A stretch of 39,240 bases of DNA from an uncultured Verrucomicrobia subdivision 3 bacterium. GTDB lineage: Bacteria; Verrucomicrobiota; Verrucomicrobiia; Limisphaerales; UBA11358. The notes below the pieces were generated by a model. It ran no database searches and had not been told where the DNA came from. It was given only the letters and a program-made list of their open reading frames with translations. A program made the position numbers and the translations under genes. Below, one piece after another: positions 2,205 to 15,086 of this stretch. The stretch spans positions 1 through 39,240 of the forward strand of contig CAIQKM010000014.1 in assembly GCA_903872345.1 (NCBI GenBank), written 5' to 3'. Position 1 is the first letter of the stretch. Every line of letters begins with the position of its first letter.

Positions 2205-2246
2205 GGATTGAAATGACCGGAGCGCAGCGGAGCGTCCTTTCAATCC
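2205..2246 (+). terminator. hairpin after the 107-aa gene
   Basis: A perfect 9-bp inverted repeat (GGATTGAAA at 2205-2213 and TTTCAATCC at 2238-2246) lies 9 nt past the stop codon. There is no clear T-tract, so this is a hairpin that may end transcription rather than a canonical rho-independent terminator. Confidence 0.35.
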
Positions 2247-2436
2247 GTGGTTGAACACCTGCTACCTAAAGTTTGGCGTTTCAGATTTTCCACGCCCGCA
2301 CCACCACCCCAGCATCTATCCGCAACCTGATCGCAATGGGCCAAGCAACAGATGAATGCCAGGATGATGGTGTAGGTGCCGGTATAATCGTGTGTGGTGC
2401 ATTCAGGCTGGCACCACTTCAGCCGGCAAGGATCAC

Positions 2437-3117
2437 TCAATTCCTCCGATCTGCTCTACATGCCAACATTGCGCGTTCACAGTCCATGCCAATACGCCAC
2501 TGAGGAACCTGAACAATGTCACGCAGCACTTCGGCGCCCATGACATCCAGGATCTTCATGGCGACCTGATGTTGTAATAGGGCGAGCTTGGCTTTGGTCA
2601 TGTGTACTCGCCGGCAGATTTCACGCACACTCAGTCCATCGGTCAGGCTTGCCACCAACTCGCGTTCAATGGTGGTGAGCTTGGACATCAGCACGGCCCA
2701 GTCCATGTTCCTAGCGGCAATCGTGGACGGATCTTCGGTGTCTTGGCTGATGACGTCGGACAATTCATGGATGTCGTCGCCGGTTTCACTTTGGCTGACT
2801 ACTTCGCTCATGAGGTGGAGTTCCGTGTGACCATTGAGCTGAGTTTGCGTTCCATGGGCATCTACGGTGTTTGAGCCACGAGCCCTACGCCCTGATTTCA
2901 TGTGCTGGAGGCAATAATACGCGATGTTGCTGGCTGTGATCTTGCCGAGCTTGCCTTGGGATTCGACGCGCTCAATCATCTGGGCGGCCATACAGATGCC
3001 GTCAGCAATGAGTTCCTGATGATCTTCGGCTCCTATTGGCTGGATGGACCTGGGGACAACTCCGGCGATACGTGGGGCAATTTCGTCGCGGAGTACATAA
3101 CCGGCTTGAGGTGACAT
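2437..3117 (-). CDS. sigma-like helix-turn-helix protein, 226 aa
   Basis: The C-terminal part contains 'LTTIERELVASLTDGLSVREICRRVHMTKAKLALLQHQVAMKI' (about residues 147-190). It reads like sigma-70 region 4 or a LuxR-type HTH: a Thr-rich linker, then a helix-turn-helix that would contact DNA. The N-terminal half (residues 15-85, with 'KITASNIAYYCLQHMKSGRR') might correspond to a degenerate sigma region 2, but I see no clear core-binding motif. A purine-rich sequence (AAGAAAGGA) precedes the start. It is transcribed away from the small secreted-peptide gene region upstream. It could be an alternative sigma factor or a sigma-derived transcriptional regulator. The family is inferred, not firmly identified. 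Confidence 0.5.
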   Translation of the reverse strand: MSPQAGYVLRDEIAPRIAGVVPRSIQPIGAEDHQELIADGICMAAQMIERVESQGKLGKITASNIAYYCLQHMKSGRRARGSNTVDAHGTQTQLNGHTELHLMSEVVSQSETGDDIHELSDVISQDTEDPSTIAARNMDWAVLMSKLTTIERELVASLTDGLSVREICRRVHMTKAKLALLQHQVAMKILDVMGAEVLRDIVQVPQWRIGMDCERAMLACRADRRN

Positions 3118-3158
3118 GGGAAGTGATTCCTTTCTTGTAGGGATGGATGAAAACGACG

Positions 3159-3186
3159 CAGCCCCTCGAAGTGAATCAAGGGGCTG
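3159..3186 (-). terminator. hairpin with T-rich tail on the minus strand
   Basis: CAGCCCCT (3159-3166) and AGGGGCTG (3179-3186) form a perfect 8-bp stem. On the minus strand it is followed by CGTCGTTTTC. It lies between the small peptide ORF at 3308-3451 and the sigma-like gene, and probably ends the former's transcript. Confidence 0.45.
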
Positions 3187-3307
3187 TTCGTGATGATTTT
3201 GGTGGTCGAGCTGAAAGCCAGACCGTCATCTTGTTATTATCCCACTTTTATTTGGAATTCTGGAGGTGGGGAGGGGCAACTCACAGACAGCAGGACAACT
3301 TGAGGCA

Positions 3308-3451
3308 CTAAACGTCCCAGGATTGCATTACAGCCGAGTTTGCACGCATCTTGGCTGGAGATGGCCAGCAGCTTTGTCGATGTGCCTGAGCCAATGACAG
3401 AGGTGCGAGCATTGCGAACAGAGTGAACATAAAGTAGCGCCACATTTTCAT
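3308..3451 (-). CDS. candidate small secreted peptide, 47 aa
   Basis: Reading from the ATG at 3451 gives a 47-residue product. Its first 23 residues look like a Sec signal peptide: MKMWRYFMFTLFAMLAPLSL, ending in A-Q-A before His. The mature part is only about 24 residues (one Cys, net basic). A strong sigma-54-like promoter sequence sits 24-40 bp upstream, and a hairpin follows about 120 bp downstream. These make a real gene more likely than the length alone would. It could instead be the intact start of a decayed longer gene, since another frame stays open to 3237. Function unknown. Confidence 0.45.
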   Translation of the reverse strand: MKMWRYFMFTLFAMLAPLSLAQAHRQSCWPSPAKMRANSAVMQSWDV

Positions 3452-3474
3452 TTCACGCAGGGGGTCAGCTCCTC

Positions 3475-3491
3475 TGCATAAACCGTGCCAA
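3475..3491 (-). promoter_or_regulatory. sigma-54-type promoter (-24/-12)
   Basis: The minus strand reads TTGGCACGGTTTATGCA. That is GG at -24 and GC at -12 separated by exactly 10 nt, with the conserved TGGCACG block. The sigma-54 consensus is TGGCACG-N4-TTGC[AT], and only one base of the -12 box differs. Transcription would begin near 3464, just before the 47-aa peptide ORF. A second copy lies at 3824-3840. Confidence 0.6.
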
Positions 3492-3544
3492 GTCAGGGTG
3501 ATGGTTTTTATAAAATACTGATATACTGAAGTATGTGACTTCTG

Positions 3545-3567
3545 AATTGTCCTCTAATAGGACAATT
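3545..3567. terminator. 9-bp perfect hairpin
   Basis: AATTGTCCT (3545-3553) pairs with AGGACAATT (3559-3567) across a 5-nt loop. On the minus strand it directly follows the stop codon of the 33-aa ORF at 3568-3669 and precedes the second sigma-54-type promoter. No T-tract follows, so terminator activity is uncertain; an operator is also possible. Confidence 0.35.
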
Positions 3568-3669
3568 CTAATTGTAATATTTAGCACTCGTCAGCAGCAG
3601 CGTGGGATGGTTGATACTGTTTGCAATAGAAGCCAACAAAGTAAACAGATTCACGTTTTTAATTTTCAT
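3568..3669 (-). CDS. candidate small peptide, 33 aa
   Basis: A 34-codon frame starting MKIKNVNLFTLLASIANS looks like a basic N-terminus followed by a short hydrophobic stretch. It could be a signal peptide or small membrane peptide. It lies downstream of the second sigma-54-like sequence (leader of about 145 nt) and ends immediately before a hairpin. No clear ribosome-binding site is present. The arrangement parallels the 47-aa ORF downstream, which is the main reason to list it. Weakly supported. Confidence 0.25.
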   Translation of the reverse strand: MKIKNVNLFTLLASIANSINHPTLLLTSAKYYN

Positions 3670-3823
3670 GATTTATTGATGAATGAAGTGCGATGTTGGC
3701 CATGAAGTTAGATTATGCGTCAGAAGCCTCCGAGGGTGTTTTCAGGCAACGGAACGGATTACTGGCCGGATCATCATGTCGTTGGTTATGGGCAGCAAGG
3801 CAGAGGAAGGGGGGCTGATGCTC

Positions 3824-3840
3824 TGCATAAAGTGTGCCAA
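3824..3840 (-). promoter_or_regulatory. second sigma-54-type promoter
   Basis: The minus strand reads TTGGCACACTTTATGCA: GG-N10-GC spacing with TGGCAC and an ATGCA -12 box. It is nearly identical to the sequence at 3475-3491, and the similarity extends a few bases on either side. Predicted start near 3813, reading toward the 33-aa ORF. Confidence 0.55.
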
Positions 3841-4179
3841 CGCCGACGTGTAAAATCTCAATCATCAATGATAGCAATGGTTTTGTGAATTCTGATTATA
3901 TGCTAATCATACAATCATGGTGAAAAACGGGGGCAAGAAAGGCCCGTAAACATAGGGTTTGGTGATTTTGGCGTCAGCTCTGGGTGCGGTTCTGGGCAGT
4001 CGTTGAGGGTAGAACTAGGGCTTTGTGACCTGGAAAGTGGTGGGGTGGTGGACACTTTTTCTGACTTTAATAGGACAAATTCAAAAATGATTTTCAAAAT
4101 AGCCCCGGCAAAGTCACAAACATACCCCACCACTCCACCACTTTTGAAATAACCGACAGGCTGGTGGTGTATTTGCAAT
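3841..4179. other. intergenic stretch with an 18-bp inverted repeat
   Basis: There is no supported gene. It holds an inverted repeat, AAAGTGGTGGGGTGGTGG at 4034-4051 against 4127-4144 (one mismatch), with an added TTTGTGAC/GTCACAAA pair (4022-4029 and 4113-4120). The repeat lies just downstream of the integrase gene. TAATAGGACAA occurs here near 4069 and again near 3556. Confidence 0.4.
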
Positions 4180-5178
4180 TTATATTCCAGGCCTATTTCG
4201 TTCAAATTCATCAAGTGACGGGCAGCACACCTTTGCTTTTCGCGCATAGGCGTGATGAATGGCGGGGCTTTCGTGTCCTAGTGCGGCTTGGGCAAACCTT
4301 TCCGGATACCCCAGACTGAACGCCCTTTCAGCCCAGGCGTAGCGGTAACTATGTAACGAGACGCCAGTGATGTCCAATAACCGGCAACGGCGATGGAACT
4401 CAGCCGAACGAGCCACGCTGTTCATGGCTCCGATTCGGGGAAACAGTGAACCAACCTCGGGCAGTTGCTTCAGGATTGATGCCAGACGCGCGCCAATCTT
4501 GATGGTGGCTTGTGTCCTGGTCTTTTCGCGCTGATACGCCAGTACCCCGTCACGGATGTTGTCACGAGTAAGCTTGGCGGCATCGGATTGGCCTGATCCA
4601 ATCTCCCATAGCACCTCGTAGAAAAGCCTGCGTTCGGTGTTCTTCTCGGCAGCCATAATTTGCTGGTGCTCATCCCAGGTAATGGCACGCTTTGGTTTGC
4701 TGACAATCTTGGGCCAGCACTGACGAGGCAGAACCGTCCGGCCATGCAACCACCCGAGATTGGCAGCCATGCTTTGCAACAGACGTAGGTAATGGATCGT
4801 GGACTTGCGCTTGTCCTTGAGCACTTCGAGAAAATCAGTGCTGGTGGTCTCGTGGATGGCTTTGCGGCGGATCTGAGCAAACGAACAACTTTCAAACGCG
4901 CGTGTGGTTCTGGCCTGTGTGTTGGGACCTCCGCGTTCAACCATGAGCCTGATCACGTCAGCCCAAGTTCTAGACGTGTGTGCTGGGTCAATGGCGGCGA
5001 GATAAATCTGGCCCACCGCCAAGGCCAAGTTTTTATCGTTAGCAGCCTCGTTCTTTGCCGCTAAGAGTCGTTCTGCCTCACCTCGATCAGTAGTGCGTAG
5101 ACTTTTCTGCTTCCCTGTTTTCCTATCTTCCGCATAAAAAAACTTACCGTGCTTGAATAATCTGTGTGTCGCTTTCAT
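4180..5178 (-). CDS. tyrosine recombinase/integrase, 332 aa, atypical active site
   Basis: It would cut and rejoin DNA at specific sites through a covalent Tyr intermediate. The C-terminal catalytic domain is clear: His276 and Arg279 in 'SLHSYRYAWAERA' (the HxxR box), His302 in 'ALGHESP', and the nucleophile Tyr311 in 'HHAYARKA'. The first catalytic Arg, normally in 'TGxRxxE', is missing; residues 193-199 read I-G-S-G-Q-S-D. I recall this variant from other Verrucomicrobiota integrase-like proteins, so it may be a family trait rather than decay. The N-terminal 165 residues form the arm and core-binding part. It points away from the tRNA-Gln gene, outside the element defined by the att repeats, and may be the remnant of another element. 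Confidence 0.85.
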   Translation of the reverse strand: MKATHRLFKHGKFFYAEDRKTGKQKSLRTTDRGEAERLLAAKNEAANDKNLALAVGQIYLAAIDPAHTSRTWADVIRLMVERGGPNTQARTTRAFESCSFAQIRRKAIHETTSTDFLEVLKDKRKSTIHYLRLLQSMAANLGWLHGRTVLPRQCWPKIVSKPKRAITWDEHQQIMAAEKNTERRLFYEVLWEIGSGQSDAAKLTRDNIRDGVLAYQREKTRTQATIKIGARLASILKQLPEVGSLFPRIGAMNSVARSAEFHRRCRLLDITGVSLHSYRYAWAERAFSLGYPERFAQAALGHESPAIHHAYARKAKVCCPSLDEFERNRPGI

Positions 5179-5336
5179 CTGGTTTTCACTCTGGTTGTGC
5201 AGTGAGGCACGATGAAAACGGACGGATTATCAGACACCCGAGTGCTGATGAGATTGAGTATTAAGAGTCCAGATTGCTGGCAATTTCACTGGCACATCGT
5301 CACTCAATCATTCCATCCCGATGCAATTCAACGGAC

Positions 5337-5410
5337 TGTCCGATGGTGTAATGGTAGCACATGGCCCTTTGGAGGCTATTGTCATGGTTCGAATCCATGT
5401 CGGACAGCCA
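5337..5410 (+). tRNA. tRNA-Gln (anticodon UUG)
   Basis: The 74-nt sequence folds as a complete cloverleaf. TGTCCGA (5337-5343) pairs with TCGGACA, the D-arm contains GGTGTAATGGTAGCAC, and TGGCC/GGCTA closes a 7-nt anticodon loop CTTTGGA. The T-arm is CATGG-TTCGAAT-CCATG. The anticodon is TTG, reading CAA. The discriminator is G and CCA is encoded. The 3' part from the T-loop onward is the left attachment site of the element that follows, so the element supplies the tRNA's present 3' end without damaging it. Confidence 0.95.
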
Positions 5411-5415
5411 CTTTT
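5388..5415 (+). repeat. attL, 28-bp direct repeat
   Basis: It starts TTCGAATCC and ends GCCACTTTT, covering the tRNA T-loop, 3' acceptor strand, CCA and five further bases. The copy at 12191-12218 is identical. The sequences diverge beyond, which defines the left edge of the element. Confidence 0.9.
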
Positions 5416-5443
5416 ATTGAGGAAAATGAAGATTCTTCAAATG

Positions 5444-5463
5444 TTTGCACAGGAATTGCACAG
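5444..5463 (+). promoter_or_regulatory. left TTTGCACA doublet (arm-type site or iteron)
   Basis: TTTGCACAGGAATTGCACAG holds two copies of the motif, 11 bp apart (one helical turn), 28 bp inside attL and just before the integrase start. Three further doublets of the same motif lie inside the right end. Confidence 0.7.
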
Positions 5464-5499
5464 AATCCGGCCCGACCGCTTCAAAAGCCGGATGGACGC

Positions 5500-6744
5500 G
5501 TGAAATTCCCCGTCACAGTCGAGCATCGCACCGGCACGGTTAAAATCTACGCCCGGTCTGGCCAGTTTGGCTATTACCGCATGGCCTACACCATCGCAGG
5601 CAAGCGGCAGATGCAGACGTTCAAGACGTATTCAGAGGCCCTTGAAGCCGCCAAGAAAAAGGCCAAGGAGATTCACGAGAACTCGTTTGCCGCCACCCTG
5701 ACCGGCGGACAGGCAAAAGATGCCCTTGCCGCGCTTCAACGTCTGGAGGCCCATTACAAGGCCAAAGGCCAGCGCATTAGCCTTAATGCCGCCGTGGGGG
5801 ATTATCTGGAGGCCATTAGCCGCTTGAACATCCCGCTTTCCGCTGCCGTGGATGGCTATTTGACCACCGTGGCAACCGTTAATCGCATTGATTTGGCTGC
5901 CGCCGTGAAAGAATTTGTGGACGGACGCGAGGTGGAAACGAAATCCGTCAACGGCAAGCGGCCGGAAATGAGCAAAAACTACTTTCAAATCACCAAACTT
6001 TGGCTTGGGTGGTTTGAAAAGACCTTTCCGTCAACGGCGGTTTGTGATCTCACCAAGGAGCATCTTGATATGTTCATGGCTGGCCGCAATCACCTTGCCG
6101 CCAAGTCCAAGAATCATCTCCGCGCCACAGTGAAGATGTTTTTGAACTGGTGCATCAAGAAAGATTATCTGTCCGCGAATCACCGTTTGCTTGATGCCGA
6201 TGGAATGAAGCGTCAAAAAGCCGATGGTGGCGAAACCGACTTTTACCGCCCCGACGAATTGAAATCCATGCTCGATGCGGCTGACGCGACCATGCGCCCC
6301 ATAATCGCGCTGCAAGGGCTGGCCGGGATTCGGTTGCAAGAGGCGCAACGGCTGACATGGCAGGATGTCTTTGGCACGGCGGGACACATTGCCATTTCCA
6401 GCACGAAGTCCAAGACCAGAAGCCGCCGCTTGGTTGAAATCTGTCCGGCACTGGCAGCATGGCTTGAACCGTATCGCCAGCACCAAGGCCAGTTGTGGAC
6501 ACAAAGCCGCGACACCTACCATGCAGCGTTTGTGGAACTCCGCAAACCCCTCAAAATCGCAGCGCGGAAAAACGGTATGCGCCATGGGTTTTGCACCTAC
6601 CATTTCGCCATGCACGGCAACGAGAATTTGACGGCGGCGCAAGCTGGTAACAGTCCGACCGTGATTCATTCCGCTTACAAGGGACTAGCCACGAAAGCCG
6701 ACGCGGAAAAGTGGTTTGCGGTGACTCCTACCAAGACAACATGA
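5500..6744 (+). CDS. int: site-specific tyrosine integrase of the tRNA-Gln element, 414 aa
   Basis: I start it at the GTG at 5500, 85 bp past attL, because the open frame upstream runs through the tRNA gene; GGATGGA just before it may serve as ribosome-binding site. The N-terminus (residues 1-60) looks like an arm-binding AP2-like domain ('GYYRMAYTIAGKRQMQTFKTYSEALEAA'). Residues 94-143 hold three successive copies of a short helix unit: AAVGDYLEA, AAVDGYLTT, AAVKEFVDG. The catalytic domain has Arg278 ('LAGIRLQEA'), Lys near 303, Arg361-His362 ('GMRHGF') and Tyr393 ('IHSAYKG'). The usual first His of HxxR is Asn358, and the later His/Trp is Asn384 ('AGNSP'). Similar Asn substitutions occur, to my recollection, in related integrases of this phylum. 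It would excise and insert the island at attL/attR. Confidence 0.9.
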   Translation: MKFPVTVEHRTGTVKIYARSGQFGYYRMAYTIAGKRQMQTFKTYSEALEAAKKKAKEIHENSFAATLTGGQAKDALAALQRLEAHYKAKGQRISLNAAVGDYLEAISRLNIPLSAAVDGYLTTVATVNRIDLAAAVKEFVDGREVETKSVNGKRPEMSKNYFQITKLWLGWFEKTFPSTAVCDLTKEHLDMFMAGRNHLAAKSKNHLRATVKMFLNWCIKKDYLSANHRLLDADGMKRQKADGGETDFYRPDELKSMLDAADATMRPIIALQGLAGIRLQEAQRLTWQDVFGTAGHIAISSTKSKTRSRRLVEICPALAAWLEPYRQHQGQLWTQSRDTYHAAFVELRKPLKIAARKNGMRHGFCTYHFAMHGNENLTAAQAGNSPTVIHSAYKGLATKADAEKWFAVTPTKTT

Positions 6745-7601
6745 ACCTGCCAAACCCCGGCACACTTGCGAATGAGACCGGGCTGATTGGCCACATATTG
6801 CGCCGCTTGCCACCACAGGCCATAAGCGAGGCGGATAGGCAAAGCGAGCCGTGGGAATGGCTCATTGAAAAAGCCAAACTAGAGAAATGGCCGGATGGTT
6901 TTCGGAAAGTATTTTTGGCCGCAGCCAGTCAGCGGAAAGCGTTAATCTGCTTGTCACAAATTGCGCGTGATGGCGGCTCAATATCTTCCCATGATTGGCA
7001 CCTGCAAATTGACGCAGCCATGAAGAGGAAAAACTTTAAGGCGGCAGACACTTTGACTCAAAATCATTTAAAATCCATCTTGCAGACCGTGCGCGGCAGA
7101 CGGTGGCTTTTGGAAAACAAAGAAGCCGGTTTGACCGCCCCGCCGGAAATGCGAGCGTGGGCACGGCGCGAGTATGATAAATTTTATACCGCCGATGTTC
7201 GCCGCTTGGGGAGAGTAAAGGCCGATGAAAAGTGGAACGGCACGGGAACCCCTCGATTCAAAATGTCCGCGAATGATGGTGACTACATAGCGGCAGCGAT
7301 GGCAAACGAGTGGCTTGTAGTAGGAAAAAACGGATTCCCCGGTTTGTGTTTCATGACCGATGAAGTTCTGGCAACGCTGCTGGGACACTTCTTGCCAGTG
7401 CCAGCGTTGTTAAACGAGAATTCACATGGCTGGAAAACTGTCCGCACAATCCGCGAACGAATTGGACTGAAAAAAGCGGGAATTATGTTCAATGGGATCG
7501 AACAAATTGGAGTGAAACAATGGGCGATACACACGCCGGACGGGAAAAAAGCCCATTCGATATCGCTGCTGTCAAACAAACCGCTTCCACCAGAATTGTA
7601 G
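6741..7601 (+). CDS. unknown protein of the element, 286 aa
   Basis: Not recognised. I place the start at 6741, where ATGA overlaps the integrase stop, indicating translational coupling; an upstream ATG at 6711 is possible but lies inside int. There is no signal peptide or membrane segment. The first 60 residues are amphipathic ('WEWLIEKAKLEKWPDGFRKVFLAAASQRKA'). A basic middle follows ('LQTVRGRRWLLENKE', 'MRAWARREYDKFY'), and the C-terminal part is mixed alpha/beta ('GVKQWAIHTPDGKKAHSISL'). The position between integrase and the AlpA-like regulator suggests a role in excision, replication or regulation of the element, but nothing in the sequence proves it. Confidence 0.75.
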   Translation: MNLPNPGTLANETGLIGHILRRLPPQAISEADRQSEPWEWLIEKAKLEKWPDGFRKVFLAAASQRKALICLSQIARDGGSISSHDWHLQIDAAMKRKNFKAADTLTQNHLKSILQTVRGRRWLLENKEAGLTAPPEMRAWARREYDKFYTADVRRLGRVKADEKWNGTGTPRFKMSANDGDYIAAAMANEWLVVGKNGFPGLCFMTDEVLATLLGHFLPVPALLNENSHGWKTVRTIRERIGLKKAGIMFNGIEQIGVKQWAIHTPDGKKAHSISLLSNKPLPPEL

Positions 7602-7637
7602 GACGACCGCCAGCCTGCCCGCGTTTAAGGTGCAGGT

Positions 7638-7853
7638 ATGTTAATTGCAAATGCACAAACAGCAACGGCGAGCGAGGATGTTAATTTCCTCGACGAAAAA
7701 CAAATCCTAACCAGAATCCCCGTAAGCAGGCGGACGCTTTGGAATTGGCGGGACTCGGGGAAAATTCCGTTCATCAAAATCGGCCGCAGAAATTTGTTTC
7801 ACTGGCCATCCGTAGAAGCTGCGCTTTTACGTCTCCAAAGGGGGTATGAATGA
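7638..7853 (+). CDS. AlpA/excisionase-family helix-turn-helix protein, 71 aa
   Basis: The core 'FLDEKQILTRIPVSRRTLWNWRDSGKIPFIKIGRRNLFHW' (about residues 18-57) is the winged-helix fold of the HTH_17/AlpA/Xis group. It has a recognition helix 'SRRTLWNWRDSGKIP' and a basic wing 'KIGRRNLF'. Such proteins activate the integrase operon or act as excisionase by bending DNA at attachment sites. It follows the 286-aa gene by 36 bp. Its stop overlaps the ATG of the 38-aa ORF (ATGA), so these are co-translated. Likely control switch of the island. Whether it works as Xis or as transcription factor cannot be told from sequence. Confidence 0.85.
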   Translation: MLIANAQTATASEDVNFLDEKQILTRIPVSRRTLWNWRDSGKIPFIKIGRRNLFHWPSVEAALLRLQRGYE

Positions 7854-7966
7854 AATCTTTCATGCGTCGGACTCGTTGCAGCAAATCCACCCTTCGCCGG
7901 GTTGAACTCATCGTGAGACGCGGCTACTACCGCAAACGCCGGGCACGGCAGGACGGTGCCCGGTGA
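7850..7966 (+). CDS. Arg-rich mini-ORF, 38 aa, coupled at both ends
   Basis: The ATG at 7850 overlaps the stop of the HTH gene (ATGA), and its own stop overlaps the GTG of the primase gene (GTGA). The product begins MKSFMRRTRCSKSTLRRVEL and continues with a cluster 'RRGYYRKRRARQDGAR'; about 16 of 38 residues are Arg or Lys. The double overlap argues for a translated gene, or at least for a coupling leader that carries ribosomes to the primase start. The strongly basic composition suggests nucleic-acid or ribosome binding, but no family is recognised. Confidence 0.5.
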   Translation: MKSFMRRTRCSKSTLRRVELIVRRGYYRKRRARQDGAR

Positions 7967-9174
7967 ACGTCACGGAATGGCGCGAACTGCTGGGCCATGA
8001 TGTCCTTCTGCTTGGATGGCCGACAGGCAGCAAGGGGACACCGAAAAAGTGGGGGCATTTAACCATCGCCAGCATGACCACCAAATATCTCGCCAAACTG
8101 GAGCACGGGAACATTGGCGTAGTCCTGGGCGCGAAGTCCGGCAACCTAATTGCGCTGGACGTGGACGACGACAGCCTTGTCGAATCGTATCTGACGCTAA
8201 ATCCATTTCTGAATGACACCCTGCAAACGCACGGGGCGCGGGGGCGCGTTTTCTGGTTACGGATGACAGGCGACTACCCCGCCAAAACAGTGAAGCTTAA
8301 AACGGCTTCCGGCGAAGCCTCTGGCGAGTTTCGAAGCAATCGAAGCCAAAGCATCATTCACGGTATTCACCCCAGCGGCAAGCCGTATGAGATTGTGAAC
8401 TTGGCGAAGCCGATGGCGGTCGCCTTTTCAAGGATCGTCTGGCCGTCTGAAATCAGCGTCCCGCCGTGCTTGCCCAACATACTGCCCAAAGCGGATTGGA
8501 CAGAGGTGACAGAGGTGACAGAGGATACCGATGTAGCAGAGGTAGCAGAGGTAGCAGAGGCAGCAGATGTCATAGTTGAGCAGTCCGTTGGTGGTTTCTC
8601 GCTTGTTTGTTCCGTAGATGAAGCCGTCAATAGATGTTTGCCGAACAAAATCCACGAAAACAATATTCGGCTTTTTGATTTAGCACGGGCCTTACTGACG
8701 CTAACAGGTCAAGGGGTTGACTTCGACCATGACGAAGTGTTTGATGCATGGCACAAGAAGGCCGAGCCGTTTCTCCGTCCTGAATTGAAAAAAGAGGACT
8801 ACTTCTTGGAATTTTTGAAAGCCTGCCATAGGGCAAGGGTGCCGTTGGGTAGCGCAAGAGTTACCGCCGCATGGGAACGAGCAAACCAGAATCTTCTGCC
8901 CCTCCCGCCAAAGGTCATGGCAATTCAAAAGCCCGGCTTCCAACTGCTGTGTGCATTTTACCGCGAAATGCAAGCTGGCGAGGGAGTAGGAAAGGTTTGG
9001 TTCGTGGCCGGCGGACTACGGGCCTGCGCCAAACTGCTTGGCCACAAGCATCATTCTACCGTTGAGACATGGACAGCGGCCATGCACACCATGAAAGTTC
9101 TCAAAACCATACAAAAAGGGGACGCACACCATTCTACACGATTTGTCTATTTACCAACTCTGCCTAAATCCTAG
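7963..9174 (+). CDS. Prim-Pol-type primase, helicase-less, 403 aa
   Basis: The first 150 residues match the bifunctional DNA primase/polymerase domain of the archaeo-eukaryotic primase superfamily. The metal-binding motif is 'LIALDVDDD' (Asp66, Asp68), then 'GRVFWLRM', then 'HGIHPSGKPYEIVN' with His136. An acidic low-complexity linker (about residues 180-202, 'EVTEVTEDTDVAEVAEVAEA') joins an alpha-helical C-terminal region of 200 residues. That region includes 'FDHDEVFDAWHKKAEPFLRP' and 'LRACAKLLGHKHHSTVETW', which may be a winged-helix DNA-binding end. No Walker A motif is present, so unlike many phage and satellite primases it lacks a fused helicase. It starts with GTG overlapping the previous stop. 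It probably replicates the excised element, perhaps from the TTTGCACA array. Confidence 0.85.
   Translation: MNVTEWRELLGHDVLLLGWPTGSKGTPKKWGHLTIASMTTKYLAKLEHGNIGVVLGAKSGNLIALDVDDDSLVESYLTLNPFLNDTLQTHGARGRVFWLRMTGDYPAKTVKLKTASGEASGEFRSNRSQSIIHGIHPSGKPYEIVNLAKPMAVAFSRIVWPSEISVPPCLPNILPKADWTEVTEVTEDTDVAEVAEVAEAADVIVEQSVGGFSLVCSVDEAVNRCLPNKIHENNIRLFDLARALLTLTGQGVDFDHDEVFDAWHKKAEPFLRPELKKEDYFLEFLKACHRARVPLGSARVTAAWERANQNLLPLPPKVMAIQKPGFQLLCAFYREMQAGEGVGKVWFVAGGLRACAKLLGHKHHSTVETWTAAMHTMKVLKTIQKGDAHHSTRFVYLPTLPKS
8499..8570 (+). repeat. in-frame 9-bp minisatellite
   Basis: Three tandem units of GACAGAGGT-type sequence are followed, after a short spacer, by four units of GTAGCAGAG type. Being 9 bp long they keep the frame and encode the repetitive acidic linker (EVT, VAE) of the Prim-Pol. 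Such a tract may change length by slippage. Confidence 0.8.
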
Positions 9175-9189
9175 TGGTCAAATAAAGAC

Positions 9190-9531
9190 TCACCCTTCCA
9201 CCCTCACCGGCTCCTCAAGAATCACAGGCGTACGGCGGCGGACAGTCGGGCGTGGACGCAGGACACCAGCAGTCGGCACCACCAATTTCCAAAGTCTTTC
9301 CTTCGCTGCGGTCAATTTTACGAAGGTTTCGGCGTCTTGGCATTCCTCCAAAAACTGGTCAACCCGGTCTATCTGGGCAAACACTCGCTTACTACGCGCC
9401 TGCTCGTCCGCAGTTTCGGGCATGGCTTCGAGCTTTTCACGGTCTAGCCGGGCGCGTTCCTTCCGCGCTGCAATCGCAGCTTGGGCGCGGCGTTGCATTT
9501 CAGCGGCATTTTCGCGGGTTATTTGCGGCAT
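9190..9531 (-). CDS. coiled-coil hypothetical protein of the element, 113 aa
   Basis: This is the only gene of the element on the minus strand. It begins MPQITRENAAEMQRRAQAAI, then a long charged helix up to about residue 80 ('ARKERARLDREKLEAM', 'QIDRVDQFLEECQDAETFVKL'), and ends in a basic tail 'RPRPTVRRRTPVILEEP'. The 'ITRENAAEMxRR' opening resembles small DNA-binding or packaging-associated proteins in phages, in my recollection, but I cannot assign a family. It faces the Prim-Pol gene and is separated from it by 15 bp. The structured-RNA candidate lies upstream of it. Confidence 0.65.
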   Translation of the reverse strand: MPQITRENAAEMQRRAQAAIAARKERARLDREKLEAMPETADEQARSKRVFAQIDRVDQFLEECQDAETFVKLTAAKERLWKLVVPTAGVLRPRPTVRRRTPVILEEPVRVEG

Positions 9532-9660
9532 ACCTGCGGAACATCCGCCGGGCCGGGCCGGATGTCAAATTACCCGACGGCACTTGCCATGCTGCCCGCC
9601 GTTTGATTCAATGTGCAACGTCAGAAAAAACAATGTAAAAACAAAAACGACACAACTTTG

Positions 9661-9807
9661 CGTAGCAACGGCTACGGTCTTCTTGGAAAACCGCGAATTT
9701 TCAAACGGGGAGATACCAGCCAGCACGCGCCAATCGGCGCGGCTTGGCGTATCTCTCCCCATGGCGCTTCGCGGTGCCTCCAAGAAGGGTGCGTCGAGTC
9801 CGCGCCC
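9661..9807 (+). ncRNA. candidate structured RNA: hairpin, 109-nt rod, terminator
   Basis: Three elements lie in series in a 370-bp gap without a supported gene. First, a perfect hairpin CGTAGC-AACG-GCTACG (9661-9676). Second, a long imperfect rod built from five stems: 9679-9687 with 9779-9787, 9691-9697 with 9768-9774, GGGGAGATAC (9707-9716) with 9749-9760, then about five pairs, then GCGCC-AATC-GGCGC (9727-9740). Third, a 7-bp GC-rich hairpin (9787-9807) followed by TTTTGTTT. About 36 base pairs would form in the rod. This is not a family I recognise. It could be a regulatory RNA of the element, a replication or packaging signal acting as DNA cruciform, or part of a long leader. Confidence 0.6.
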
Positions 9808-9815
9808 TTTTGTTT
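9787..9815 (+). terminator. rho-independent terminator
   Basis: GGGTGCG pairs with CGCGCCC (one G-T wobble) across a 7-nt loop, directly followed by TTTTGTTT. It ends the structured-RNA region and lies about 90 bp before the first cargo gene. Confidence 0.65.
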
Positions 9816-9905
9816 CACAGACAAGTGACCGCGTCGAAAGTAAGTCAACTATTGTGAAATGCAATCCCTTCTAAATTTATGATCAAATCACTGGCAAAAT
9901 TTAAA

Positions 9906-10487
9906 ATGAAAAACTCAATCCGGTTCGCCATATTTTCGATAACCATCGCATTATGCACCGCTCTTCGAATTTCGGCGCAAACTTATGTTACGCTCGTTGC
10001 AACAGTTGGCGGGCCGGCAAGTTTGAGCATACCCACCAACACTCTGGCAACGGTAATTCATGTGACCCCAAACCCAACGCCTTATAATAATTCCTCTTAC
10101 CTTTCATCGGGATATTCAGTAAATGTGACTGTTGGAGCCGCTGTCACGACGTATTACCCATATGGGTTTTCTGGAACTGGTGTGACGCTTAACAATACGT
10201 GGCCGGTTGTGGTTGGGCCTGCGAGTATCTCTTTGACAAATGGTGGCTATTCCTGCCCCGGAACCGTAATATGCACCGTTCAGCTTACTCCGATTAACCA
10301 AAACGTGGTCTCAAATTACGTCCCAGCGGATGCTATTGTGATCCCTGCCAGCACTTCTGGAACTGCCCAAATCATTTTGGAATCAAGCCCGGATTTGGTA
10401 AACTGGACGGCTGCAAATCCCGGAACGTATGGAGCATCTGCTGGAACAAACCGTTTCTTTAGAGTTCGCGCCACAACAACGCACTAA
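9906..10487 (+). CDS. secreted cargo protein, 193 aa
   Basis: I start it at the ATG at 9906 (MKNSIRFAIFSITIALCTAL...), which gives a good Sec signal peptide ending near 'ISAQ'; an ATG at 9879 is in frame but adds a less typical basic lead. The mature protein is rich in Thr, Val, Asn and Ser, typical of beta-rich extracellular proteins, with two Cys ('YSCPGTVICTV'). The end 'ILESSPDLVNWTAANPG...NRFFRVRATT' matches a C-terminal module frequent in exported proteins of Verrucomicrobiota. Its job is unknown. As cargo of a mobile element it may be a surface or adhesion factor. Confidence 0.75.
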   Translation: MKNSIRFAIFSITIALCTALRISAQTYVTLVATVGGPASLSIPTNTLATVIHVTPNPTPYNNSSYLSSGYSVNVTVGAAVTTYYPYGFSGTGVTLNNTWPVVVGPASISLTNGGYSCPGTVICTVQLTPINQNVVSNYVPADAIVIPASTSGTAQIILESSPDLVNWTAANPGTYGASAGTNRFFRVRATTTH

Positions 10488-10545
10488 AGGTGATTGTGCC
10501 TGTTGTCCGCTCCGCCTGCCTGTCGATTTGTTGACTGCACCAAAA

Positions 10546-11676
10546 ATGAAAACCCGAAAAACCATTTTCATTGCAATCAATCTCTTGGCGGCAGTTGCCT
10601 CCGCACAGGACGTGCCTAATCCGACTAACCAAGTCAAAACTGACGAACTGATTATTGATGCGGCTGACGCAAAGAATTATGTTGGCAAAGAAGCAACCGT
10701 AATTGGGGTTTTATCGCATGTCAGTTTAATAAAAACATCACCTTATTTTTACAGCCCAATTTGCGATATTGATGGAGTCGAACCGCATCAAGCGTTTAAT
10801 ATTGTCGGCGAAGATTGTTCCTGGGTTACTCTTGCGCCAAACTTTCGAAGATTAAATGAGCACTTGAATGAATACGTGTATGCAAGTGGCGTAATTGTTA
10901 CCATCGCAAAAACAGGAGTCCCGGCAATCTTGGTTAAATCAGCAGACGAAATTTTTTTTTATAACCAAGCCGACACGAATGGGACAGAAGCAATTCAAGC
11001 GACAAAAAAAAATCCTGCCGGTGACATCTTCGACCAGATAGCGGCGGAAAGACCAAAAATTAAAAACCCATTCGACCAGTTTGACCAGAGGGTGAAAGAA
11101 TTCACACCTTCATTACCAAATGATCGGGTTTCCGAATCTCTCCCTCCAACGATTCCGACTCCAGCCTCTCAGGTTGAGGCGAGTAGTATTTCCGGTTCGG
11201 GTGGAAGTCCCTCTGTGCTTGCGTGCGTGGTTTGCACAATTGCCGTTGTTGCATTCGGCTTTGTCCTTGTCAGAGTGTTTGACATTCGGTTGTTTGGTGG
11301 AAATGTGGTCAAAGCAAAGATTGGCGAAACTGTTATTGAAATTAAAGATAAGCCAATTAAAAACGAGCCCCCCCACGAAACGTTAAAGCCAAAAAAACCT
11401 GTGAATCCCACAAAAAAAATCCTCAAGTTGGCAGCTGTTCTATTCGTAGCGAGCTGCCTTTTGCCTCCGTGGCAATATACCGAGGACCGCAATGGCACAG
11501 GAGGCTACCACAGCCGCAAACCAGCCGGTTATTCAATTCTCTTTAACCCTCCAGAGACCGGCCGGTTTTATTGGGATGGTGTCCAAATTGATTTCGGTCG
11601 CCTGTTTCTGGAATGGACTGCAATCGTCGGCCTTACGGGCGTGATCTGGATGTTTGCCAAAAAATCGAATAAGTGA
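10546..11676 (+). CDS. membrane cargo protein with OB-like exported domain, 376 aa
   Basis: The start at 10546 gives a signal peptide (MKTRKTIFIAINLLAAVASA). Residues about 30-135 ('AADAKNYVGKEATVIGVLSHV') look like an OB-fold. A Pro/Ser-rich linker follows, then a membrane segment (VLACVVCTIAVVAFGFVLV), a basic cytoplasmic loop, a second membrane segment ending in 'SCLLPPWQYTED', and a last one ('FLEWTAIVGLTGVIWMF'). The C-terminal unit 'LPPWQY...AGYSILFNPP...IDFGRLFLEW' recurs, in my memory, in small membrane proteins of many bacteria, often in accessory regions. It lies 58 bp after the secreted protein gene, so the two are likely one transcript. Function unknown. Confidence 0.75.
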   Translation: MKTRKTIFIAINLLAAVASAQDVPNPTNQVKTDELIIDAADAKNYVGKEATVIGVLSHVSLIKTSPYFYSPICDIDGVEPHQAFNIVGEDCSWVTLAPNFRRLNEHLNEYVYASGVIVTIAKTGVPAILVKSADEIFFYNQADTNGTEAIQATKKNPAGDIFDQIAAERPKIKNPFDQFDQRVKEFTPSLPNDRVSESLPPTIPTPASQVEASSISGSGGSPSVLACVVCTIAVVAFGFVLVRVFDIRLFGGNVVKAKIGETVIEIKDKPIKNEPPHETLKPKKPVNPTKKILKLAAVLFVASCLLPPWQYTEDRNGTGGYHSRKPAGYSILFNPPETGRFYWDGVQIDFGRLFLEWTAIVGLTGVIWMFAKKSNK

Positions 11677-11970
11677 CCGTTTTTCAAAATACAGGCTCTC
11701 ACTAAACCCCATAAGCGTATCACTGCCACCCCTCGAAAATCCCCCTGCCACCGGCACACCGCCCCCACGGTCTGGCGAAAAAAGGGGAGTCCTCATTGGC
11801 AACCCCTCCCCCACTCCGGGAGCACCATCCGCCCGGCTTCACCTACACCGCCACAACACCCCGCGCCGTGCGCTGGGACGGCATTACAGCGACTTTGACC
11901 GGGCGGGCGTTCTCGTCCTCCCCGGCGGCAGGGCGGACATGCCGCAAGCCGCCGATGGCAGGACATCCCT
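11677..11970. other. non-coding right arm of the element, left part
   Basis: The frames open here give translations without any recognisable feature, rich in Pro, Arg and Cys. The sequence is GC-rich, unlike the cargo genes before it. I see no gene. Confidence 0.4.
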
Positions 11971-12057
11971 GTTGCACAGATTTGCACAAGTCCGGGCCGC
12001 ACTTCCGGTTTGCACAACTTTTGCACACGCCTTTAGGTTTGCACAGAAATTGCACAT
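11971..12057 (+). promoter_or_regulatory. right array of six TTTGCACA motifs in three doublets
   Basis: Copies start at 11971, 11981, 12009, 12020, 12038 and 12049, all in the same orientation, with 10-11 bp between the members of each pair. The last pair (TTTGCACAGAAATTGCACAT) differs from the left-end doublet at 5444-5463 in only two of 20 positions. Such spaced direct repeats are typical of integrase arm-type sites, and also of replication-initiator iterons. Both ideas fit the gene content. Confidence 0.75.
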
Positions 12058-12073
12058 ATTTTTCTGCTGTTGG

Positions 12074-12135
12074 TTGCTCATAGAATCACGAATACCATTG
12101 AAATCATTGATTATTACCTGCTACTCTATGAGCAA
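12074..12135. repeat. 11-bp inverted repeat near attR
   Basis: TTGCTCATAGA (12074-12084) is the exact reverse complement of TCTATGAGCAA (12125-12135). The AT-rich 40 bp between them include CATTGAAATCATTGAT. It sits between the TTTGCACA array and attR, a likely place for a regulator, Xis or replication protein to bind. Confidence 0.6.
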
Positions 12136-12190
12136 TGAATGGCATTAAAACACCCCCGACCGGCAGCACTGAGAATACCTCAAAACATGA

Positions 12191-12218
12191 TTCGAATCCA
12201 TGTCGGACAGCCACTTTT
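12191..12218 (+). repeat. attR, 28-bp direct repeat of the tRNA-Gln 3' end
   Basis: It is identical to 5388-5415, starting TTCGAATCC and ending GCCACTTTT. The flanking sequence does not fold as tRNA, so this is the displaced original 3' end of the gene. The following run of T may be the original terminator of the tRNA. Confidence 0.9.
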
Positions 12219-12261
12219 TTCACTGCCGGTTTGGCAATCATTCCTGGGGGCGGGCAGCGAA

Positions 12262-13023
12262 TCAACGCCATTTGCCGGCGGCCGCTCGGAGTTGGTTTCC
12301 CAACATTTTCAAACTAAAACCTGCCAGTTGTCGTATTCCCAACCGGGAAGCAATGTCCGGGACATTATCGGCGCCGACGCGGCACAGCGGTTGGTGGCGG
12401 GGCTGCCAGGCATGATTTAACGCCGCGCCGACGCGGATTCCATATTGGTAGTGCCGGGATACGGATTGATGGGCGCGGGCGTTGACGCTGCCATAAGGAT
12501 AGACAAAGGTGTCCACCGACCGGCCCAGATTTGTTTCCAAGAGTTGCCGGGAGTGAAGGCACTCAAAATCGACATCCGTGTCCGGTCGCCGCATATCGGG
12601 ATGATGATGAGAATGGGAGGCCATTTGGACGCAACCGGCGGATTGCATTTCGCGCAGTTCGGGCCAGGTGCAGAACGGGGCTTGTTCGCGAAAGGTGTTG
12701 GCTTGCATGGCCGCCAATTGGGGCACCGCCAGGCGGGCTTCGGGATCGCGGGTGGTGCCGTCCAAGATAAATGCCGTGGGCACCGCGAGCACGGCCCGCA
12801 GGGAATGTTTTTTCAGCAGCGGAAAGACACGAAAATAAAAATCGGCGTAGGCGTCGTCAAAAGTCAGGCAGACATTCAGCCGTCGGGGCGGCAACGGTTC
12901 GCCTGGCAGGACAATATTGGCGCGGGTGCGAAGGGTGGCAAAATGGGATTCCAGAACCTCCGGCGGATTACCCAGGCCCAAATGGGGTGGGGCCGCCCGG
13001 TGATACATCAGAATCAGGAGCAT
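12262..13023 (-). CDS. polysaccharide deacetylase (NodB-like), 253 aa
   Basis: This family (carbohydrate esterase 4) removes acetyl groups from N-acetylated sugars of the envelope using a metal. The motifs are in order: 'CLTFDDAYADF' (catalytic Asp pair), 'ASHSHHHPDM' (metal-binding His residues), and 'FVYPYGSVN'. No signal peptide is present, which suggests a cytoplasmic location and a sugar-lipid or nucleotide-sugar-linked substrate. Its ATG lies 2 bp after the stop of the glycosyltransferase gene upstream, so the pair is surely co-transcribed. Together they point to surface glycan or LPS assembly. The gene ends about 43 bp from attR. Confidence 0.88.
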   Translation of the reverse strand: MLLILMYHRAAPPHLGLGNPPEVLESHFATLRTRANIVLPGEPLPPRRLNVCLTFDDAYADFYFRVFPLLKKHSLRAVLAVPTAFILDGTTRDPEARLAVPQLAAMQANTFREQAPFCTWPELREMQSAGCVQMASHSHHHPDMRRPDTDVDFECLHSRQLLETNLGRSVDTFVYPYGSVNARAHQSVSRHYQYGIRVGAALNHAWQPRHQPLCRVGADNVPDIASRLGIRQLAGFSLKMLGNQLRAAAGKWR

Positions 13024-13025
13024 GT

Positions 13026-13778
13026 TTATTTCCGCAGATGCTGGTTGGCTTCCATTAGCTTGACGTACTTATAATACACACCCTGGGAATTGGCGGCGGA
13101 AATGATAAAGCCTTCGCGACCACTCAGGAAGCCAAGCTGAAAGAAGTAATGTTTGAAAAACGACCAGACGGAGCGGGAGATGGCTTTGGTCAGGGAGGAA
13201 GTTTTGACACCCCGGTTCTCTTCGACGAACAGGTCGGAGTAGCGCTGGATTTTGATCAGAAAATCCCCCGAACCGGAGAAGGAATAGTGCAGGATGGGGC
13301 CTTGCAACGGGATTTCCCGCATCCCTTCGGTAACAATTTTTTCGTGAACCCGGGCATTGCTGAAGGTGGTCCGTTTACGATTAAACAGCCGGACATGGCG
13401 GTCGGGATACCAGCCGCAGTGGCGGATCCACTTGCCGTTGAAGTAGTTTTTTAGTGATACGGAATAGACGGCCCCGTCATCGGCAGCGAGGGATTGGATT
13501 TCGGCCGCCAGTTCGGGAGAGACGACTTCGTCGCTGTCCACGGAGAAAATCCAGTCGTGCAGGGCCAAGGCACTGGCCTTGTTATGCATGGGGCCGAAGC
13601 CCATGAAAGCAGTTTCAAAAATCCGGACATTGGTGAATTTCCGGGCTATGTTCAGGGTTTCATCCCGGGAACCGGAATCCAGGACCACGACATCATCAAA
13701 ACAGCGCAACGCCGTCAACACTTTTTCCAAGTGCCTTGCGCTGTTGAAGGTGAGGATTGTAATGCTAACCCGGATCAT
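13026..13778 (-). CDS. family 2 glycosyltransferase, WaaE/KdtX-like, 250 aa
   Basis: The N-terminal GT-A fold begins 'VSITILTFNSARHLEKVL'. It continues 'VVVLDSGSRDET' and has the metal-binding 'FSVDSDEVVSPEL'. The later 'GKWIRHCGWYPDRHVRLFNR' and 'ARVHEKIV' segments are typical of the LPS core glycosyltransferases WaaE/KdtX. It would add a sugar to lipid A-core or a related surface glycolipid at the inner membrane. The C-terminal part (about 195-250) is hydrophobic and aromatic, probably membrane-associated. It is the first gene of a two-gene unit with the deacetylase and is divergent from aroQ. Confidence 0.88.
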   Translation of the reverse strand: MIRVSITILTFNSARHLEKVLTALRCFDDVVVLDSGSRDETLNIARKFTNVRIFETAFMGFGPMHNKASALALHDWIFSVDSDEVVSPELAAEIQSLAADDGAVYSVSLKNYFNGKWIRHCGWYPDRHVRLFNRKRTTFSNARVHEKIVTEGMREIPLQGPILHYSFSGSGDFLIKIQRYSDLFVEENRGVKTSSLTKAISRSVWSFFKHYFFQLGFLSGREGFIISAANSQGVYYKYVKLMEANQHLRK

Positions 13779-13981
13779 GACCTATTTTGAGTTGGAATCT
13801 AATTCTGTAAAGTCTCTCGAAAAGCGGTGGCAAGTCAAGCCCACCATGGACAATGTGGGACAAGATCCGTTTGACGGGGAAGGAGGCTACGCCCGAGGGA
13901 GCGTGGTGTCGGGTCGGCCAAGCTTGGCTGGTTCCGGAAATCCATTCGACAGCCAACCGGGTTTTGGCTAACCTGTCAGCC

Positions 13982-14422
13982 ATGAAAGTTTTGTTCCTCA
14001 ACGGGCCGAACTTGAATCTGCTGGGTACCCGTGAACCGGAGATTTATGGGCGCCTGACGCTGGCGGATATTGAGGCAGAAGTCCGGGTGCGGGCCGGGCA
14101 GTTGCAGGTGGAATTGGATTTCCGGCAATCGAACCAGGAAGGAGAACTGGTAAGTTGGATTCAAGAGGCCAAGGGGAAGTATCAGGTGATCGTCCTCAAT
14201 GCCGCCGCCTATACCCATACCAGCGTCGCCTTGCGCGATGCCATCTCGGCTACCGGAGTTCCCACGATTGAAATTCATCTTTCGAATGTCCATGCCCGGG
14301 AAGAGTTCCGGCACAAATCGCTCATCGCGCCGGTATGCCGGGGGCAAATCTGTGGGTTTGGGGTGAAATCATACATTTTAGGCCTGGAGGCGGCAGTTTA
14401 CGTTAAAGAAGCCGCAAAATAG
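13982..14422 (+). CDS. aroQ: 3-dehydroquinate dehydratase, type II
   Basis: It catalyses dehydration of 3-dehydroquinate to 3-dehydroshikimate in the shikimate pathway; the active form is a dodecamer. Motifs are '[20 protein letters not shown]' at the start (catalytic Tyr in 'IYG'), '[14 protein letters not shown]', '[16 protein letters not shown]', and '[17 protein letters not shown]' with the active-site His. At 146 aa it has the usual length. The frame is open from 13853, but the conserved protein starts at 13982. It stands before accBC, separated by a hairpin and a new promoter. Confidence 0.97.
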
Positions 14423-14423
14423 A

Positions 14424-14448
14424 GCTGTATTTAGCCAAAAAGTACAGC
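14424..14448 (+). terminator. hairpin after aroQ
   Basis: GCTGTA (14424-14429) pairs with TACAGC (14443-14448), 2 nt past the aroQ stop. There is no T-tract, so it is a weak terminator at best. Confidence 0.3.
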
Positions 14449-14469
14449 CTTGCCTTGGTAAATTAGAAC

Positions 14470-14497
14470 TTGACGTTTCCAATAGGCGAAATACAAT
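14470..14497 (+). promoter_or_regulatory. sigma-70 promoter of accBC
   Basis: TTGACG (14470-14475) and TACAAT (14492-14497) are separated by 16 bp and match the -35 and -10 consensus closely. Transcription would begin near 14504. The leader is about 27 nt for the upstream start or 93 nt for the start preferred here. Confidence 0.65.
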
Positions 14498-14596
14498 CTG
14501 ACAAACCTAGTTTTACCGTTTGGTGGTTTAGTGTCGAAAAAGTTAAGATTTAGGGAAAAAGCACATTATTTTAACGACTTTAACGAAAAACGAACC

Positions 14597-15067: not shown

Positions 15068-15086
15068 GGGTTCATCCGTTTTCATC

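What the first reader, a model, noticed from the sequence alone, without database searches (positions are those of the whole stretch)
5388..12218. A tRNA-Gln-integrated, satellite-like island with int, AlpA, Arg-rich mini-ORF and Prim-Pol
The sequence shows a 28-bp perfect repeat of the tRNA 3' end enclosing a 6.8-kb set of genes, with the integrase at the tRNA end. The gene order int, unknown, AlpA-like, mini-ORF, primase resembles PICI-type phage satellites, but no satellite of this form is known to me from Verrucomicrobiota. It has no capsid, terminase or relaxase gene, so it would rely on a helper phage or a plasmid. Several of its proteins are unrecognised.
Basis: partly seen in the sequence, partly recalled or inferred. 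Interest (0 to 1): 0.88.

Follow-up and report, generated by a model that had tools for sequence, protein, structure and literature searches.

The report
Tiny tRNA-seated phage hitchhiker island
A 6.8-kilobase piece of DNA inserted in a glutamine-tRNA gene belongs to a family of small islands seated in many different tRNA genes of Limisphaerales bacteria; it likely moves by hitching a ride in phage particles, and it carries a conserved folded RNA that is predicted to control its cargo genes.

Summary
A 28-bp perfect repeat of the tRNA-Gln 3' end encloses 6.8 kb with an integrase at the tRNA end. One same-genus genome has the empty site: a single tRNA-Gln joined to the window's right flank (88% identity).

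The island is one of a family. Of 44 loci examined with this integrase type, 40 have it just 3' of a tRNA (eight isotypes) and 16 show the closing repeat. In those 16, short CACA-ended motifs beside the tRNA recur in the last 350 bp: candidate integrase arm sites.

The gene order (int, ATGA-overlapping gene, AlpA, mini-ORF, Prim-Pol, cargo) is closest to the Vibrio PICMI satellites, but site and primase type differ. The window island has no packaging gene. Relatives do: the three best integrase matches among viral contigs carry terminase genes, one as int-AlpA-Prim-Pol-TerS-TerL. A helper-dependent phage satellite is likely, not shown.

Unexpected: the cargo is preceded by a ~165-nt structured RNA with strong covariation and no Rfam match, found in 113 of 320 genomes of the order, nearly always just before a same-strand gene. 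I propose a new cis-regulatory leader.

The parts
5337..5410 (+). tRNA-Gln(TTG), the insertion site; its 3' end is attL
5388..5415 (+). attL core, 28 bp, perfect copy of 12191-12218
5445..5462 (+). left arm: TTGCACA at 5445 and 5456 (11 bp apart), candidate integrase arm sites
5500..6744 (+). tyrosine integrase (414 aa, GTG start assumed)
   Evidence: Pfam PF00589 at its cut-off, PHROG phrog_1 E 2e-26
6741..7601 (+). ORF2 (286 aa), overlaps the int stop as ATGA; placed like iolg of PICMI; no known family or fold
7638..7853 (+). AlpA-like excisionase/regulator (71 aa)
   Evidence: PF12728 HTH_17 E 5e-7, phrog_66 E 5e-8
7850..7966 (+). Arg-rich mini-ORF (38 aa), overlaps the ends of AlpA and Prim-Pol
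   Evidence: homologues in L025, L026, L028, L033 and L093
7963..9174 (+). Prim-Pol replication protein (403 aa)
   Evidence: PF09250 E 4.9e-7; 163 homologues
8499..8570 (+). 9-bp direct repeats (GACAGAGGT-like) in the Prim-Pol linker; speculative origin iterons
9190..9531 (-). small protein of unknown function (113 aa); homologue in island L101 (47%)
9648..9822 (+). conserved structured RNA, proposed leader of the cargo genes
9879..10487 (+). cargo 1, 202 aa, signal-peptide-like start (by eye); no family
10546..11676 (+). cargo 2, 376 aa, signal- and membrane-like stretches (by eye); no family
11972..12056 (+). right arm: TTGCACA at 11972, 11982, 12010, 12021, 12039 and 12050, candidate integrase arm sites
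12191..12218 (+). attR core; to the right the chromosome matches G008 at 88%
4180..5178 (-). second tyrosine integrase, outside the island; likely the right end of another element in tandem at the same tRNA
   Evidence: PF00589 E 3.2e-9

Best explanation
The 6.8-kb stretch between the two tRNA-Gln repeats is a site-specifically inserted island that likely excises by its own integrase and AlpA protein, is predicted to replicate through its Prim-Pol protein, and would be packaged by a helper phage as a satellite. Shown: the insertion (repeat plus an empty site in a relative), the family of like islands in other tRNA genes, matching arm motifs at both ends, and terminase genes in relatives with the same integrase type. 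Inferred, step by step: a helper phage induces alpA; AlpA with the integrase (and probably ORF2, placed like the iolg gene that PICMI115 needs for excision) recombines attL with attR; Prim-Pol copies the excised DNA, perhaps from repeats inside its own gene; the helper's terminase packages it, since this island has none of its own. The cargo genes (9879-11676) start just after a conserved structured RNA that I predict to be a cis-regulatory leader, perhaps a transcription attenuator.
For: Repeat and its uniqueness; empty site in G008; integrase family in 149 of 320 order genomes, next to a tRNA in 40 of 44 loci, closing repeat in 16 of 44, AlpA match in 33 of 44; arm motifs 78 in the 16 right ends against 20 in the interiors, 13.9 against 0.15 per kb; TerS and TerL in L031, L096 and L113 and in the three best viral-contig matches L196, L197, L198, L197 having the window's own module order int-AlpA-Prim-Pol before TerS-TerL; the same order of genes as PICMI115, where alpA, int and iolg are needed for excision and prim for full copy number.
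Against: The window island itself has no packaging gene, and no helper, excision or transfer has been seen. Only 3 of 44 integrase loci in genomes have clear TerS and TerL matches (a fourth, L104, has a weak TerS match only). TerL of the L096 type is in 5 of 320 order genomes, and only two of those stretches hold this integrase. The single-sequence Prim-Pol scan of viral contigs found nothing. Being in a viral-contig collection is itself a prediction.
Confidence: 0.6

Rival explanations
1. The island is an integrative element that moves by other means: as a passenger of conjugative elements or plasmids, by general transduction, or as an integrating plasmid-like replicon with Prim-Pol. No phage would be hijacked.
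For: No packaging gene in the island; most of the related loci examined have no terminase match either (40 of 44 without any); cargo in several islands is secreted, surface or defence-like rather than phage-interfering.
Against: No relaxase family was hit among the island proteins scanned. The same integrase type is joined to TerS and TerL in L031, L096, L113, L196, L197 and L198.
Confidence: 0.25
2. The island is a decayed remnant that no longer moves.
For: Single draft genome; the island was found at one place in the own genome; the att copies differ at one base; related L033 has a shortened Prim-Pol.
Against: int, ORF2, AlpA, mini-ORF and Prim-Pol are open with overlapping ends, and the full set of two left and six right arm motifs is present.
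Confidence: 0.12
3. For the RNA: it is not a leader of the next gene but an independent small RNA gene, or a DNA palindrome used in recombination that marks where cargo is inserted.
For: It ends in a GC-rich hairpin and often a T-rich tract, so a free transcript is possible; the downstream genes are diverse; folded single-stranded DNA would leave the same covariation.
Against: Of 43 copies, 38 precede a same-strand gene, 36 of these with a start -1 to 63 nt from the T-rich tract, while 16% of 1511 random positions meet a similar rule. A free RNA or recombination site need not be so placed.
Confidence: 0.35

Closest known systems
PICMI (phage-inducible chromosomal minimalist islands, Vibrionaceae; PMC10803314, passages and section 10 read)
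   Same: About the same size (PICMI average 6.7 kb; here 6.8 kb); int, a gene overlapping int by ATGA, alpA, a gene before prim, prim, then accessory genes; no capsid-remodelling genes
   Different: PICMI sits at fis in all the cases its authors found; here tRNA-Gln. PICMI primase models are DUF3987/DUF5906; here PF09250 Prim-Pol. Helper and induction unknown here; other phylum
Gram-negative PICI (PMC6092414, passages read)
   Same: Rightward genes from int through an alpA-type regulator to a primase; specific attachment site; accessory genes
   Different: PICI origin lies 3' of the replication gene, here only speculative repeats inside it; no terS or interference gene recognised; induction by phage untested
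Capsid-forming PICI and other satellites with packaging genes (recalled, named in PMC11389934 passages)
   Same: The relative L096 carries TerS, TerL and a Mu-like protease match next to this integrase type
   Different: The window island has none of these; the L096 capsid candidate (327 aa) has no family match
tmRNA-seated islands moved by a jumbo phage (I55; PMC12595487, passages read)
   Same: Tyrosine integrase at an RNA gene, direct repeats, alpA, no autonomous transfer genes
   Different: alpA at the far end from int, larger, Pseudomonas, no primase term in that paper
Riboswitch or attenuator leaders (Rfam)
   Same: Structured, covarying RNA directly 5' of genes, ending in a terminator-like hairpin
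   Different: No Rfam match for the window copy or in nine further sources with copies; downstream genes are accessory and unlike one another

Membership tests
PICMI | int, alpA and prim next to each other, small size | tested here: met
   though the prim model differs (PF09250, not DUF3987/DUF5906)
PICMI | integration at fis (called a hallmark by its authors) | tested here: not met
   seated in tRNA-Gln; so not filed as a PICMI
PICMI | excision and packaging on infection by a virulent helper | not testable with these tools
   needs culture and phage
PICI | unique and specific attachment site | tested here: met
   repeat and empty site
PICI | replication origin of conserved organisation 3' of the replication gene | tested here: inconclusive
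   only clustered repeats inside the Prim-Pol gene were seen
PICI | phage-dependent induction, interference and packaging into infectious particles | not testable with these tools
   needs experiment
Phage satellite in general | genes or signals that favour packaging by a phage | tested here: inconclusive
   absent in the island, present in relatives with the same integrase type
Integrative and mobilizable element | relaxase or a recognised transfer origin | tested here: inconclusive
   no relaxase family hit among the island proteins; a transfer origin was not searched for
Known Rfam RNA family | match to a covariance model of the family | tested here: not met
   window 4000-13000 at E up to 1: the tRNA only; nine sources with copies at E up to 0.1: a tRNA and two Acido-Lenti-1 matches below their cut-off, outside the RNA

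The most novel reading that the evidence does not exclude
A lineage of tRNA-seated minimal phage satellites in Verrucomicrobiota, from bare int-AlpA-Prim-Pol forms to forms with their own terminase, shares with other accessory DNA a new, phylum-wide class of structured RNA leader that keeps cargo genes (restriction-modification, surface and secreted proteins) silent by attenuation until a signal such as phage infection releases them.
Probability: 0.3. Interest if true: 0.88.

Novelty: new variant of a known kind. Interest (0 to 1): 0.72.

Why it matters
It would extend minimal phage satellites to a phylum for which my paper searches listed none, with a natural series from bare to terminase-bearing islands around one integrase family, and with clean att and arm sites to test. 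The structured RNA is a second prospect: a covarying element in about a third of the order's genomes, with no Rfam match, sitting in front of accessory genes. If it is an attenuator, it would be a common control device for horizontally acquired genes.

Tried and rejected
Prim-Pol as a single sequence found no relative in viral contigs; the alignment later found three, of which only L197 is a close one. A profile search of PDB sequences with the Prim-Pol alignment gave nothing meaningful, so catalytic residues were not mapped. ORF2 has a confident model (mean pLDDT 87.4) but no fold match at E up to 0.001 in PDB or BFVD; I name no function for it beyond its iolg-like position. PADLOC on ten cargo proteins gave defence hits for two only, an AbiEii (L090) and a methyltransferase (L107); none for the one window protein included, cargo 2.

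Iterons in the primase gene: CAGAG-type repeats sit in the linker with a 9-bp period in the window, an 8-bp period in L026 and L033, and on the opposite strand in L031 (periods read by eye), which suggests that DNA rather than protein is conserved. With a strict motif L026, L031 and L033 exceed all 100 random sequences, but the window reaches only 3 copies, as 1 of 100 random sequences does, and other Prim-Pol loci such as L036, L037 and L039 have no cluster. Kept as speculation.

The consensus terminator scan did not list the last hairpin of the RNA; it listed the first one. 'Terminator-like' is my reading: at least 6 T in the next 10 nt in 32 of 42 copies. A strand-swap antiterminator is conceivable (7 or more contiguous pairs between the apical stem's 3' side and the terminator-like 3' strand in 41 of 42, between the 5' sides in 28 of 42), but these stems are near-invariant, so that is no test. 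The own-genome copy on contig C6 lies near a tRNA-Ile, but no repeat of that tRNA was found in the 12 kb read.

Rows dropped: of 45 RNA places the fragmentary L096 and L106 were left out before alignment, and L173 (same downstream gene start as L172) was left out of the 42-row alignment. Downstream genes of L160 and L168, far from the RNA, were left out of the 36 scanned. For the family survey I fetched 40 loci chosen by score and contig length from the rows that one search listed (a cut list), and added the window and three earlier loci; this is no random sample. Several of these contigs end soon after the integrase.
Full report
1. Check. tRNA-Gln(TTG) is at 5337-5410. Its 3' end and five further bases recur at 12191-12218: 28 bp perfect, within a 33-nt match with one mismatch, 5383-5415 / 12186-12218; chance expectation is nil. 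The own genome holds four similar places in all. The integrase start is taken as GTG 5500. The window is the whole contig C14.

2. Empty site and tandem. Of 49 genus genomes (the own one included), G008 alone besides the own genome has the right-flank gene at E<=1e-20, and tRNA-Gln stands next to it there. The G008 contig matches window 5335-5413 at 100% and window 12186-17449 at 88%; both matches share the one repeat copy. G008's left flank matches another contig of the own genome, C134, over 10.3 kb at 88%, up to and including a second tRNA-Gln. So the ancestral locus was left flank - tRNA-Gln - right flank. In the window's genome it likely holds two elements in a row: one that starts after the C134 tRNA and ends, past a contig break, with the minus-strand integrase 4180-5178; and the island described here. 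Because of the break the tandem is inferred.

3. One of a family. The integrase has relatives at E<=1e-30 in 149 of 320 genomes of the order. I examined 44 loci: the window, three earlier ones, and 40 chosen's list. In 40 of 44 a tRNA gene lies within about 240 nt upstream of the integrase match, of eight isotypes (Gln, Leu, Pro, Arg, Lys, Val, Asn, Gly); the exceptions are L087, L092, L095 and L116. An AlpA match is present in 33 of 44. In 16 of 44 a repeat of the tRNA 3' end (21-46 bp, at most one mismatch) closes an island of 6.2 to 14.7 kb; in the rest the contig ends or no repeat was found. The own genome has a second such island, in tRNA-Arg on C17, 7.1 kb (L089). By length and match, G026:C7 is PKZR01000040.1, 'Limisphaerales bacterium isolate bog_1421', which puts the genus in Verrucomicrobiota.

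4. Arm sites. In the 16 complete islands a pair of 7-mers ending in CACA, 11 bp apart, follows the tRNA, at about +34/+45 in 14 of them and about +72/+83 in L088 and L090. The letters differ between islands (TTGCACA in six; CCGCACA, TGACACA, CGACACA and mixed pairs in the others), but each island's own 7-mers recur in its last 350 bp, in many of them as up to three pairs near -240/-230, -205/-195 and -177/-166 from the end. Counts: 78 in the right ends (13.9 per kb) against 20 in the interiors (0.15 per kb). The left pair was picked by the script, so the right-end excess is the test. L110, L117 and L107 have only one, two and three right copies (all). This marks each stretch as one recombination unit.

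5. Gene order and model. The integrase stop and the ORF2 start overlap as ATGA; a 4-nt overlap with an ORF of at least 60 aa is seen in 7 of 19 loci. AlpA, mini-ORF and Prim-Pol follow with overlapping ends; the mini-ORF has homologues in five other loci. In PICMI115 of Vibrio the genes are int, iolg (ATGA overlap), alpA, up1, prim and up2 (order pieced together from passages); alpA, int and iolg are needed for excision, and loss of prim lowers copy number. I take this as the best model of the window island. It is not a PICMI: fis, the stated hallmark site, is not used, and the primase type differs.

6. Packaging link. The window island has no packaging gene. Among the 44 loci, L031, L096 and L113 have TerS and TerL; L104 has a weak TerS match only. 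L096 also has a Mu-like protease match, at the Pfam cut-off. TerL of the L096 type is in 5 of 320 order genomes; of the stretches read, two hold this integrase and one a weak match. A scan of viral contigs with the integrase alignment gave eight loci. The best three (49, 44, 43% identity) all carry TerS and TerL (in L196 the TerL frame scores slightly higher to a family of unknown function); the other five (25-28%) were not examined. L197 is the key one: int, AlpA, a Prim-Pol 39% identical to the window's, TerS, and a TerL 87% identical to that of L096, on 5.2 kb. This supports a satellite lineage; it does not show that this island is packaged. The own genome has two TerL-like frames (C40, with one in-frame stop, and C33), whose surroundings were not studied.

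7. The structured RNA. The stretch 9600-9870 folds far better than shuffles (z -5.0) and has no Rfam match (further copies). A DNA search found relatives in 30 of 49 genus genomes. On 42 aligned copies, with a structure taken from the window copy, 85.7% of cells pair (shuffled mean 77.8%), 26 of 51 pairs have changes on both sides, the covariation score is 0.266 against 0.117, and none of 500 shuffles reaches any of the five measures; sliding the partners lowers pairing to 37-48%. The shuffles do not keep relatedness, and a structure drawn from one row favours the unslid version; but stem P2 is 97.0% paired with several pair types at most positions, on an alignment not fitted to the structure. 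Inner stems fit less well (71 and 69%). The covariance model finds copies in 113 of 320 order genomes, 58 of 118 genera, and in 70 of 387 genomes drawn over the phylum. Of 43 copies, 38 precede a same-strand gene, 2 face an opposite gene and 3 have none on the contig; 36 of 38 starts lie -1 to 63 nt from the T-rich tract. Of 1511 random positions 49% have a same-strand next gene and 16% meet a slightly wider distance rule. Downstream genes are diverse: of 36 scanned, 5 match N6/N4 DNA methylases (the same number type III methyltransferases in PADLOC), 2 the EcoRI methylase family, 1 N6_Mtase; others have Ig-like or no domains (the PADLOC list shows 25 of 63 families). Copies lie in 6 of the 16 complete islands (window, L107, L089 strong; L079, L083, L026 at 56-70 bits), next to a same-strand ORF as read from coordinates, and 2 of the own genome's 3 copies are in islands. 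One viral contig holds the RNA's exact two-part pattern. I infer a cis-regulatory leader; attenuation is my preferred but untested mechanism.

8. Literature. PMC10803314: passages and section 10. PMC6092414, PMC11389934, PMC12595487: passages only. Searches for phage satellites or genomic islands with Verrucomicrobia or Verrucomicrobiota and for structured RNAs with them listed nothing that, by title and abstract, describes these islands or this RNA; I saw the best rows only, and subscription papers and preprints are not in the library.

9. Verdict. The island is real and was inserted by site-specific recombination. A helper-dependent phage satellite is the best reading (0.6). As a system it is a new variant of a known kind. 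The RNA may deserve its own study.

Noticed in passing
window 1-5336 and contig C134 (L032): Likely a second element in tandem at the same tRNA-Gln. After the C134 tRNA its reading frames look, by eye, like a sigma-type regulator and a replication helicase; towards the window's tRNA it ends with a minus-strand integrase (4180-5178). The contig break hides the middle.
   Followed up: partly
window 4034-4145; C134 (L032 reverse complement) 14252-14361: A ~110-bp imperfect palindrome beside the left integrase recurs on C134 at 77-81% identity in both orientations; there a reading frame next to it looks like an integron-type integrase by eye.
   Followed up: no
window 1075-1389 and 2437-3117: An HU/IHF-like small protein (by eye only) and a weakly sigma-factor-like protein (phrog_1740, E 0.016) left of the tRNA.
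   Followed up: no
L096 (G021:C185) 9059-14787: A tRNA-Pro island with AlpA, TerS, TerL, a Mu-like protease and two unknown proteins (327 and 253 aa) that could be a capsid module; the 327-aa protein has one homologue, 94% identical.
   Followed up: partly
L197 (IMGVR_UViG_3300049729_000307): A 5.2-kb viral contig with int, AlpA, Prim-Pol, TerS and TerL, starting with a CCGCACA arm pair: a terminase-bearing cousin of the window island.
   Followed up: yes
G000:C40:68461-69870 and G000:C33:20729-21958 (L194, L195): Two TerL-like reading frames in the own genome, one with an in-frame stop; possible helper prophages.
   Followed up: no
L147:3778-3823 and 3941-3988: Two Acido-Lenti-1 RNA matches below Rfam's cut-off, upstream of an RNA-leader copy.
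   Followed up: no
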